56,164 bases of DNA from Oscillospiraceae bacterium (GTDB taxonomy: Bacteria; Bacillota; Clostridia; Oscillospirales; Oscillospiraceae), in assembly GCA_017937195.1 (NCBI GenBank), contig JAGBEA010000027.1, forward strand, positions 1 through 56,164. Direction: 5' to 3'. The notes below the pieces were generated by a model, which worked only from the letters and a program-made list of their open reading frames with translations, did not search any database and had not been told where the DNA came from. This document shows, one piece after another, positions 8,819-10,104 of this stretch (its first letter is position 1; the number at the start of each line of letters is the position of its first letter). Made by a program: the position numbers and the translations under genes.

Positions 8819-8911
8819 TCAGCCGTCCTGCCGGTTTTCTGCGCGGTAGATCAGATAATACTCCGGCGCACCTGTTTCACAAAACAGCTGCCAGTAGCTT
8901 GCCCCATCCAT
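8819..8911 (-). CDS. yqzL: YqzL family small protein
   Basis: This 30-codon frame lies between era and recO, the place where Bacillus carries yqzL. The peptide begins MDGASYWQLFCETGAPEYY and continues LIYRAENRQDG. The pattern of Trp, Phe, Thr-Gly and a Tyr-Leu/Ile-Tyr segment resembles the YqzL family, which has no known function. The ATG at 8911 is preceded by GGGGAGGTG at good spacing. The stop lies inside a perfect 9-base inverted repeat (8809-8830). It is somewhat shorter than the Bacillus protein. Position and pattern support the call, but the match is from memory. Confidence 0.7.
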   Translation of the reverse strand: MDGASYWQLFCETGAPEYYLIYRAENRQDG

Positions 8912-8991: not shown

Positions 8992-9045
8992 TTACTGCTC
9001 GTCGTAGCCCTGAGATCGGATGAAATTCATATTGTCTCGCCAGTT
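8992..9045 (-). pseudogene. Second copy of the last 18 codons of era
   Basis: These 54 bases repeat the 3' end of era (9202-9255) at a fixed offset of 210 bases. Both copies encode Asn-Trp-Arg-Asp and the following 13 residues to Gln, then a stop. The six base differences fall in five codons and all are synonymous. Similarity ends abruptly at both edges. The copy has no upstream reading frame, so it is a non-functional fragment. It probably came from another era allele rather than from simple drift of a recent duplication. Confidence 0.85.
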
Positions 9046-9201
9046 TGCCCCATTAAATTCCCATTTAATGGGGACCCCGTATTTCATCGCTTTACGGCGG
9101 AAGTGAATTCCGCCTACGCAATTCTGACGAATTGACGCCGTGTTCGGCGGCTCGCTACCGCTCGCAAGAAAACCGGCAAAAAGTTCTGCGTCTTTTGAAG
9201 A
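9046..9201. mobile_element. Possible remnant of a small element inserted at the 3' end of era
   Basis: About 156 bases lie between the two era 3' ends. They hold two clean hairpins: a 10-base perfect arm at 9048-9057 with 9064-9073, and GGCGGAA/TTCCGCC at 9096-9114. A weaker hairpin lies near 9137-9150. No reading frame of note is present. The layout (direct repeats of a gene end flanking structured filler) is what a site-specific integrative element leaves when it restores its target gene and then decays. The element class is unknown. Confidence 0.45.
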
Positions 9202-10104
9202 TTACTGCTCGTCGTAGCCCTGACTTCTGATAAAGTTCATATTGTCTCGCCAATTCTCTTTCACCTTCACCCAGGTTTCCATATAGACCTTGGTGCCCAT
9301 AAAGCGCTCGATGTCGCGGCGGGCAAGGGAGCTGATCTTCTTCATCATTTCGCCGCCCTTGCCGATGATGATGCCCTTATGGCTGGACTTTTCGCAGTAG
9401 ATAGTCACATCCAGATCGATGATACCGGTCTCGCGCTCGGTGAAACGGGTCACCTCCACCGCCGTGCCGTGGGGGATCTCCTTATCGAGACAGCGCAGCA
9501 TCTTCTCGCGCACGATCTCGGCGCAGACCTGCGCATCGGGCTGGTCGGTAGTCATACCGTCGGGGAACAGCTGAGGACCCTCCTGAGCATACTTGCTCAG
9601 CTGTGCCATCAGCTCCTCCAAACCGTCGCCGGTGCGGGCGGAGATGGGGATAATGGCGTCAAAGCCGTCATAATACTGGCTGTACGCAGCAATGACCTCC
9701 AGCAGTTCTTCCTTCTTTTCCACCGTGTCCACCTTATTGATGCACAGGATCACAGGGATCTGCTCCTCCTGCACGCGCTGCAGCAGGATCTTCTCCGGCT
9801 CGCCCACATGGGCGATGGGCTCCACCAGCAGCAGTGCCGCCTCCACATCGGCAAGGCTTTCACGCACCACCTTGACCATATAGTCGCCCAGACGGGAGCG
9901 GGGCTTATGCAGACCCGGGGTATCCAGCAGCACATACTGGGTGTCGCCGCGGTTCACCACGCCGTAAATGCGGTTGCGGGTGGTCTGGGGCTTGTTGGAC
10001 ACGATGGCGATCTTCTCGCCCACCAGCGCGTTGGTCAGGCTGGATTTGCCCACATTGGGGCGTCCGCATACGGTGATCATAGCGGTTTTGGTAACAGTGT
10101 TCAT
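9202..10104 (-). CDS. era: GTPase Era
   Basis: Era binds the 3' end of 16S rRNA and supports maturation of the 30S subunit. The 300-residue protein has the G motifs GRPNVGKSSL (residues about 13-22), DTPGLH near 60 and NKVD near 122, then a C-terminal KH domain with GKGGEMMKKI near 250. Length is normal. The ATG follows GAGGATCATCTT. The last 18 codons are duplicated 210 bases downstream, and this intact end may have been supplied by an inserted element. Confidence 0.96.
   Translation of the reverse strand: MNTVTKTAMITVCGRPNVGKSSLTNALVGEKIAIVSNKPQTTRNRIYGVVNRGDTQYVLLDTPGLHKPRSRLGDYMVKVVRESLADVEAALLLVEPIAHVGEPEKILLQRVQEEQIPVILCINKVDTVEKKEELLEVIAAYSQYYDGFDAIIPISARTGDGLEELMAQLSKYAQEGPQLFPDGMTTDQPDAQVCAEIVREKMLRCLDKEIPHGTAVEVTRFTERETGIIDLDVTIYCEKSSHKGIIIGKGGEMMKKISSLARRDIERFMGTKVYMETWVKVKENWRDNMNFIRSQGYDEQ

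What the first reader, a model, noticed from the sequence alone, without database searches (positions are those of the whole stretch)
8992..9255. Duplicated 3' end of era with only synonymous differences
The last 18 codons of era occur twice, 210 bases apart. Six base changes affect five codons (both Asn, Phe, Arg, Ser) and none changes an amino acid. That means both copies evolved under coding selection, so the outer copy is a stranded end of another era allele and not a decaying local duplicate. A small element that inserts in the last codons of era and carries its own replacement end would create this, with the filler 9046-9201 as its decayed body. I know of no described element with this target.
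Basis: partly seen in the sequence, partly recalled or inferred. Interest (0 to 1): 0.7.

Follow-up and report, generated by a model that had tools for sequence, protein, structure and literature searches.

The report
Guide-carrying mobile element in gene ends
The doubled end of era looks like one copy of a widespread, tiny, protein-free mobile element of Clostridia that seems to find the ends of essential genes by a built-in complementary guide and brings a spare copy of the gene end with it, so that the gene is not broken.

Summary
In detail: 48 of 54 bases, six changes, five codons, all synonymous. The filler is not decayed. It is a copy of a dispersed structured element: about 120 nt of scaffold in a unit of about 215 bp. 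12 of 32 genus genomes have strong matches and 43 of 394 order genomes match at E 1e-6; one genome holds 46 copies, one 63. In 62 of 73 copies (62 of 78 with five left out) the element lies between two copies of one sequence, mostly a gene end; in a further sample, 19 of 20. Targets include era, asnS, aspS, infB, lepA and uvrB. For duplicates up to 80 nt, unit length does not follow duplicate length, against a plain target-site duplication. Most units hold about 12 nt complementary to their own target across the insertion point (42 of 57 above the 99% null; forward control 2). Tail differences are mainly synonymous (113:13). asnS is filled in 2 genus genomes, empty in 25. Best reading: a guide-directed, non-coding mobile unit carrying its own replacement gene end. 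The enzyme is unknown.

The parts
9202..10104 (-). era, intact; its last 54 bases lie inside the mobile unit
   Evidence: ORF; GTPase Era in NCBIfam; tail
9046..9255 (-). mobile unit as read here (210 bp): replacement era tail, linker, guide remnant, four hairpins, two end bases; inserted between 9256 and 9045
   Evidence: spacing 210 against a mean of 214 (sd 20) in 89 copies with duplicates up to 80 nt
9202..9255 (-). copy 1: era tail carried by the unit, now the working end of era
   Evidence: that it came with the unit is inferred
9178..9201 (-). linker between the stop codon and the guide, unlike the native downstream DNA
9166..9177 (-). guide position; degenerate here (best own-target score only 5, elsewhere in the unit). 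Clear guides stand at this place in G005, G012, G013 and G016
9136..9151 (-). hairpin H1
9119..9134 (-). hairpin H2 (short era-subtype form)
9096..9114 (-). hairpin H3 with the conserved GAATTCAYTTC core
9048..9073 (-). hairpin H4, right end of the unit, two bases before copy 2
9047..9151 (-). covariance-model match (55.2 bits) to the element scaffold
8992..9045 (-). copy 2: displaced original era tail, followed by native downstream DNA

Best explanation
The era tail duplication is the mark of a non-coding mobile unit of about 215 bp. Its 5' part is a replacement copy of the target gene's end (about 30 to 160 bp, commonly 40 to 85), then a linker, then a guide of about 12 nt complementary to the target across the insertion point J, then four hairpins, the last of which ends a few nt from the right border. 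The unit inserts at J, often just after GA. The old gene end is displaced behind the unit and the gene continues with the end the unit brought. Shown: the anatomy, the near-constant unit length for duplicates up to 80 nt, the guide match, the fold of one strand, empty and filled sites, and a coding past of both tails. Inferred: that the guide directs insertion, that units spread between related lineages at the same gene (a homing-like habit), and that an enzyme supplied in trans acts on the folded strand as ssDNA (IS200/IS605-like) or as RNA. How a unit takes up the tail of a new gene is not known.
For: Repeat beside the element in 62 of 73 copies, 54 of 102 new ones and 19 of 20 in one genome (null maximum 27 against a threshold of 36). 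Spacing independent of duplicate length: slope -0.04 +- 0.25 in 23 copies with at least 97% identity and duplicates up to 80 nt. Guide: 42 of 57 above the 99% null, forward control 2 of 57; replicate 32 of 54, forward 1 of 54; in the 87 of 111 copies with a guide score of at least 8.5, over 60% are paired at each of J-5..J+7. At era, G013 has the AAT codon and a guide with the matching change. Scaffold: 28 of 30 pairs with two-sided changes, 97.9% of cells paired; G.U 56 against A.C 9. asnS: filled in 2 genus genomes with core and second tail together, neither in 25 genomes, 26 loci. Tails synonymous:nonsynonymous 113:13 and 78:29 in sense cases. Where tails differ the guide fits copy 1 at 28 positions, copy 2 at 12, neither at 8. 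Nine queries besides era, eight further genes, named by NCBIfam (some below full-length cut-offs because only part of the gene was given).
Against: No enzyme found: RVT_1 in 4 of 12 genus genomes with strong element hits and 3 of 20 without, Y1_Tnp in 5 of 12 and 7 of 20. The window's own guide fits era poorly. 48 of 102 elements of the second set have no repeat above the threshold, partly subfamilies with other right ends or beside tRNA genes. Five further copies of 45 to 57 bits (L143 to L147) had no adjacent repeat and were not in the 73. At G000:C37 the intact gene (mutL-like) lies on the wrong side of the element. Over all 124 copies the slope of spacing on duplicate length is 0.40 +- 0.07. 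Guide mismatches show no wobble bias (16 G.T, 24 A.C, 114 others). Some second copies decay (G241, G230; L229, L327), and the antisense synonymous excess is not significant under the half-neutral model. In dtd the two tails of one genome share species-specific bases, which points to gene conversion. Copies at one gene in related genomes are not independent.
Confidence: 0.7

Rival explanations
1. An ordinary non-autonomous transposon of about 130 bp that makes long target-site duplications of 30 to 100 bp; the noncoding part of copy 1 then decays.
For: The final layout is the same. Duplicates of 74 to 84 bp that end near the guide exist (lepA 78/79, aspS 74/74 and 83/84). The slope over all 124 copies is 0.40, between the two models.
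Against: Predicts slope 1 of spacing on duplicate length; observed -0.04 +- 0.25 in well-preserved copies up to 80 nt. In identical tails (asnS 40/40, G012 55/55, efp 42/42) similarity stops at or within 2 nt of the stop codon and the linker is unlike native DNA. Differences are mostly synonymous. Does not explain the guide.
Confidence: 0.13
2. A self-splicing RNA: the guide and the J region form the helix that holds the 5' splice site, so unspliced and spliced messages end in copy 1 and copy 2 and encode the same protein end.
For: Guide pairing on both sides of J, a structured 3' domain on one strand, mostly synonymous differences in sense copies.
Against: 14 of 57 copies lie antisense to the gene, where splicing of the gene's message cannot act. 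No Rfam match over the scaffold. The scaffold is only about 120 nt. J-1 is T in 20 of 111, unlike the U at a group I 5' splice site (recalled).
Confidence: 0.08
3. One reading: an integrase-bearing element specific for era, decayed to its ends.
For: A replacement gene end with synonymous changes is what integrase-type elements in protein genes can bring (icd case, recalled).
Against: The unit is of normal family size, covaries and sits at many genes; no larger form was seen.
Confidence: 0.04
4. A conserved regulatory RNA or terminator, with gene-end copies made by replication slippage around its hairpins.
For: Strong hairpins; tandem arrays exist (G008).
Against: Patchy presence at orthologous sites, antisense copies and target-matched guides.
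Confidence: 0.05

Closest known systems
IS200/IS605 family (IS608) single-strand transposition and its non-autonomous derivatives
   Same: Subterminal hairpins, a guide placed 5' of a hairpin base that pairs with the target, insertion 3' of the recognised target bases; engineering extended IS608 pairing to 12-17 nt (PMC5934647, passages). Absence of a target duplication there is recalled.
   Different: Natural guide of about 12 nt pairing on both sides of J, no transposase gene, a replacement gene end of 30 to 160 bp, and no association with Y1_Tnp in the genus.
IS110 bridge RNA systems
   Same: Structured non-coding guide that names the target (PMC11208160, passages).
   Different: There two guides pair with different strands and a recombinase is encoded in the element; here one continuous guide pairs with one strand and the unit has room for no such gene.
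Integrase elements in gene ends (e14 and phage 21 in icd, SpyCI in mutL)
   Same: Element sits at a gene end; replacement end with synonymous changes for icd (recalled). For SpyCI only the site, the 5' end of mutL, is taken from the listed abstract.
   Different: Kilobase elements with an integrase and no guide (recalled); here about 215 bp and many targets.
Mobile group II introns
   Same: Intron RNA pairs with the DNA target (start of the abstract of PMC3898094, listing; detail recalled).
   Different: No reverse transcriptase in the unit, no known ribozyme core found, carries a coding tail, and lies antisense as well.
REP/BIME palindromes with TnpA-REP
   Same: Dispersed palindromes that may be non-autonomous (PMC8266576, abstract and outline).
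   Different: No target-matched guide and no gene-end duplication known to me (recalled).

Membership tests
IS200/IS605 non-autonomous element | guide 5' of a hairpin pairs with the target, no target-site duplication | tested here: met
   Guide mostly 0-3 or about 14-18 nt before the model start; unit length independent of duplicates up to 80 nt
IS200/IS605 non-autonomous element | ends shared with a resident IS200/IS605 element | tested here: not met
   No model match at the Y1 loci among the hits; no element-like ends by eye in the flanks printed for G000, G019, G003 and G027
IS200/IS605 non-autonomous element | Y1 transposase present where the element is present | tested here: inconclusive
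   Y1_Tnp in 5 of 12 genus genomes with strong hits and 7 of 20 without; many genomes incomplete
Group II intron | known ribozyme core | tested here: not met
   No Rfam match over the scaffold at E up to 1 in 13 loci; one sub-cut-off hit (AsrC, E 4e-5) falls on the lepA tail of L096
Group II intron | reverse transcriptase in cis or in the genome | tested here: not met
   RVT_1 not found in G000 (92% complete), which holds 8 copies
Group I intron | known core; U before the 5' splice site | tested here: not met
   No Rfam match over the scaffold; J-1 is T in 20 of 111
IS110 bridge RNA element | DEDD recombinase beside the RNA | not tested
   The IS110 family was not searched
MITE with target-site duplication | spacing grows with the length of the target-site duplication | tested here: not met
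   Slope -0.04 +- 0.25 for well-preserved duplicates up to 80 nt; 0.40 +- 0.07 over all 124 copies
Integrase-type element at a gene end | replacement gene end | tested here: met
Integrase-type element at a gene end | integrase gene | tested here: not met
   No larger form for the 11 copies without an adjacent repeat; longest tail spacing 430; none inside an element in the six loci

The most novel reading that the evidence does not exclude
A naturally programmable insertion system: a folded RNA that names its site by a guide across the cut and is copied into DNA from the nicked target strand, whose end can anneal to the gene tail that follows the last hairpin. The order guide, scaffold, priming site resembles a natural prime-editing RNA, used by a retroelement without its own enzyme to home into the ends of essential genes.
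Probability: 0.2. Interest if true: 0.97.

Novelty: categorically new. Interest (0 to 1): 0.87.

Why it matters
A protein-free element of about 215 bp that names its target by a 12-nt guide and repairs the gene it enters would be a new way of being a mobile element. It would be a new nucleic-acid-guided insertion system, present in tens of copies in some Clostridia genomes. It would also explain gene-end duplications beside housekeeping genes, and it makes a direct question testable: which enzyme reads these guides.

Tried and rejected
Rejected: chance repeat. Rfam family: searches gave six hits below the curators' cut-offs, none on the scaffold; one (AsrC, E 4e-5) lies on the lepA tail of L096. 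Reverse transcriptase or Y1 transposase as the obvious partner. Autonomous form: the 11 copies without an adjacent repeat; a segmental duplication in G008 and an unrelated serine-recombinase ORF in G005. First gene-strand calling by longest open frame was wrong for many copies and was replaced by codon usage. In one search several cross-species pairs were not aligned in frame (for example aspS, uvrB, truB), so its totals are not used.

Rows dropped. The 73 copies are top hits for which stretches were fetched; the eight model-building sequences are among them, and many further hits were not examined. Left out of the 73 though seen: L143 to L147 (45 to 57 bits, no adjacent repeat; 62 of 78 with them), L158 (cut by a contig end) and the hits under 31 bits (L148 to L156). 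Of the 62, five with tandem spacing over 300 were dropped, leaving 57. One search took 108 of 138 elements with enough flank, less 6 already seen, and did not check each repeat for being a gene end; one search dropped 2 of 57 and 20 of 54 for unclear strand. The 20 copies are the best-scoring unexamined ones of G271, not random.

Literature: ten searches of an open-access library, nine with listings and one with no paper; read as passages PMC5934647 and PMC11208160, as abstract and outline PMC8266576, all else as listings. No listing showed this element; subscription papers were not searched.

Full report
Observation. The last 18 codons of era occur twice, at 9202-9255 and 8992-9045, starts 210 bases apart, 48 of 54 bases equal. 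The six changes lie in five codons and are all synonymous. No 54-nt pair in 200 shuffles of the region came near it (33 against 48 matches).

The filler is a family. A 19-base palindrome of the filler (9096-9114) recurs in other contigs and genomes. A covariance model of eight copies matches 17 of 32 genus genomes at E 0.01, five of them only by hits of about 30 bits or less; 12 of 32 have hits over 45 bits. It matches 43 of 394 order genomes at E 1e-6, in 24 of 168 genera, with nine candidates scored per genome. With up to 150 candidates scored, single genomes hold up to 46 (G271) and 63 (G089) copies. Own genome G000 holds eight. On 76 aligned copies (72 distinct) 97.9% of cells pair and 28 of 30 pairs show two-sided changes; covariation is 0.537 against 0.141 in shuffles, with the caution that the alignment was fitted to the model. 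G.U pairs (56) exceed A.C (9), so the strand with H4 at its 3' end is the one that folds; without one pair the counts are 22 and 9. Rfam has no match over the scaffold in 13 loci. Ten viral contigs have it too.

Gene ends are doubled. Of 73 copies examined, 62 have a repeat scoring 36 or more; the second copy starts -2 to +6 nt from the model end in 61 and 17 nt away in one. Counting five copies that I had left out, it is 62 of 78. In new loci from named genomes and viral contigs it was 54 of 102, and in 20 further copies of one genome 19. By codon usage 43 of 57 lie at gene 3' ends in sense and 14 antisense, mostly at gene 5' ends. In one of the 57 (G000:C37) the intact gene lies on the other side of the element, against the rule. 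NCBIfam names era, asnS, infB, aspS, uvrB, lepA (both ends), efp, groEL and dtd among the targets (partial genes, some under the full-length cut-off). Others (uvrC, truB, hisS, upp, mutL, argH) are my recognition of printed protein ends.

Fixed unit. If this were target-site duplication, spacing would grow one for one with duplicate length. In 23 copies with at least 97% identity and duplicates up to 80 nt the slope is -0.04 +- 0.25; in 89 copies up to 80 nt it is 0.00 +- 0.14; over 124 copies, long ones included, it is 0.40 +- 0.07. 46 of 57 spacings lie between 200 and 235. Identical tails of 40, 55 and 42 bases end at or within 2 nt of the stop codon, with unrelated linker behind. So the tail is best read as part of a unit of about 215 bp.

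Guide. Inside most units, usually at unit position 74-85 and close to H1, lies a stretch complementary to the target across the insertion point. Own-target scores average 11.2 against 5.7 in 3120 mismatched pairs; 42 of 57 exceed the 99% null and 2 of 57 do so on the forward strand. The second set gave 32 of 54 and 1 of 54. In the 87 of 111 copies with a clear guide, pairing covers J-5 to J+7. G stands at -2 in 67 of 111 and A at -1 in 53 of 111. Where the tails differ the guide fits copy 1 28 times, copy 2 12 times, neither 8 times. At era the guide reads GCCAGTTTTCC in G005, G012 and G016, and GCCAATTTTCC in G013, whose own era has the matching codon change; the window's copy is degenerate. 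Guide mismatches show no wobble bias (16 G.T, 24 A.C, 114 others).

Coding past of both tails. In set 1, sense copies show 113 synonymous and 13 nonsynonymous codon changes; even if only half the changes fell in an unconstrained copy, p is 8e-12. In set 2 it is 78 and 29, p 0.02. Antisense copies show 20:7 and 13:6, not significant under the half-neutral model. Copies at one gene in related genomes are not independent. So the two tails mostly behave as alleles with separate coding pasts, though some second copies decay. Scaffolds at the same gene in different genomes are more alike (mean 0.856, 32 pairs) than at different genes (0.80-0.81), but the nearest scaffold was at the same gene in only 14 of 32 copies. 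In 26 of 79 same-gene pairs the element is more alike than the gene body, mostly in distant pairs where conserved structure alone might do it; truB units of two genera share 0.89 where the body shares 0.72. In dtd, gene conversion between tails is visible.

Mobility. asnS is filled in G000 and G029 (core and second tail together) and has neither in the other 26 loci, 25 genomes, including the close relatives G010 and G024. Era shows the same patchiness. Tandem units exist.

Mechanism. Insertion at J by a guide that reads the target strand is the simplest reading. The enzyme is unknown. RVT_1 occurs in 4 of 12 genus genomes with strong hits and 3 of 20 without, Y1_Tnp in 5 of 12 and 7 of 20, and RVT_1 was not found in G000. 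The nearest working model in print that I saw is IS608, whose guide sits 5' of a hairpin, pairs with the target and was engineered to 12-17 nt (PMC5934647, passages). Antisense copies speak against splicing as the reason for the layout. How a unit changes gene is open.

Limits. Most genomes are drafts or MAGs, many incomplete; J is known to about two bases; gene strands rest on codon usage; 48 of 102 elements of the second set had no repeat above threshold; the literature library holds open papers only.

Noticed in passing
window 8829-8840 and 9167-9178: The degenerate guide of the window's element is a perfect 12-nt complement (pair I5) of a site in the last codons of the small ORF between era and recO (8819-8911, minus; my reading, YqzL-like from memory): drift, retargeting or chance.
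   Followed up: no
L240, L243, L244, L252, L266, L276, L280, L323, L330, L342, L346: Copies of the core without adjacent duplicate and with another right hairpin seem to lie beside tRNA genes. ARAGORN places a tRNA within about 100 nt in L240, L244, L252, L266 and L276; L323, L342 and L346 hold one tRNA each (distance not checked); none near the core in L243, none in L280 or L330.
   Followed up: partly
L230, L245, L247, L251, L257, L259, L260, L281, L282, L288, L292, L299, L338 and others: A subfamily with a conserved right extension after H4 (ACACGGCTGGTTCC), some with repeats about 80 nt further out.
   Followed up: no
L127 (G008:C1:1916206-1916977): Four tandem units at the end of lepA, spacing about 217, nearly identical: repeated insertion or amplification.
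   Followed up: partly
L349, L352, L353, L354: Units on viral contigs carry long tails (95-160 nt) with the guide further from J (108-141 nt where it scores 11 or more), so the unit length is not absolute.
   Followed up: partly
L144 857-2506 and 2874-2958 (G005): An ORF that looks like a serine recombinase (by eye) and an 85-bp match to L143 lie right beside an element copy without duplicate; another mobile element may use the spot.
   Followed up: no
L010 and L044 (G016, G031, era): Element remnants after era without the second tail; in G016 H4 is missing as well.
   Followed up: no
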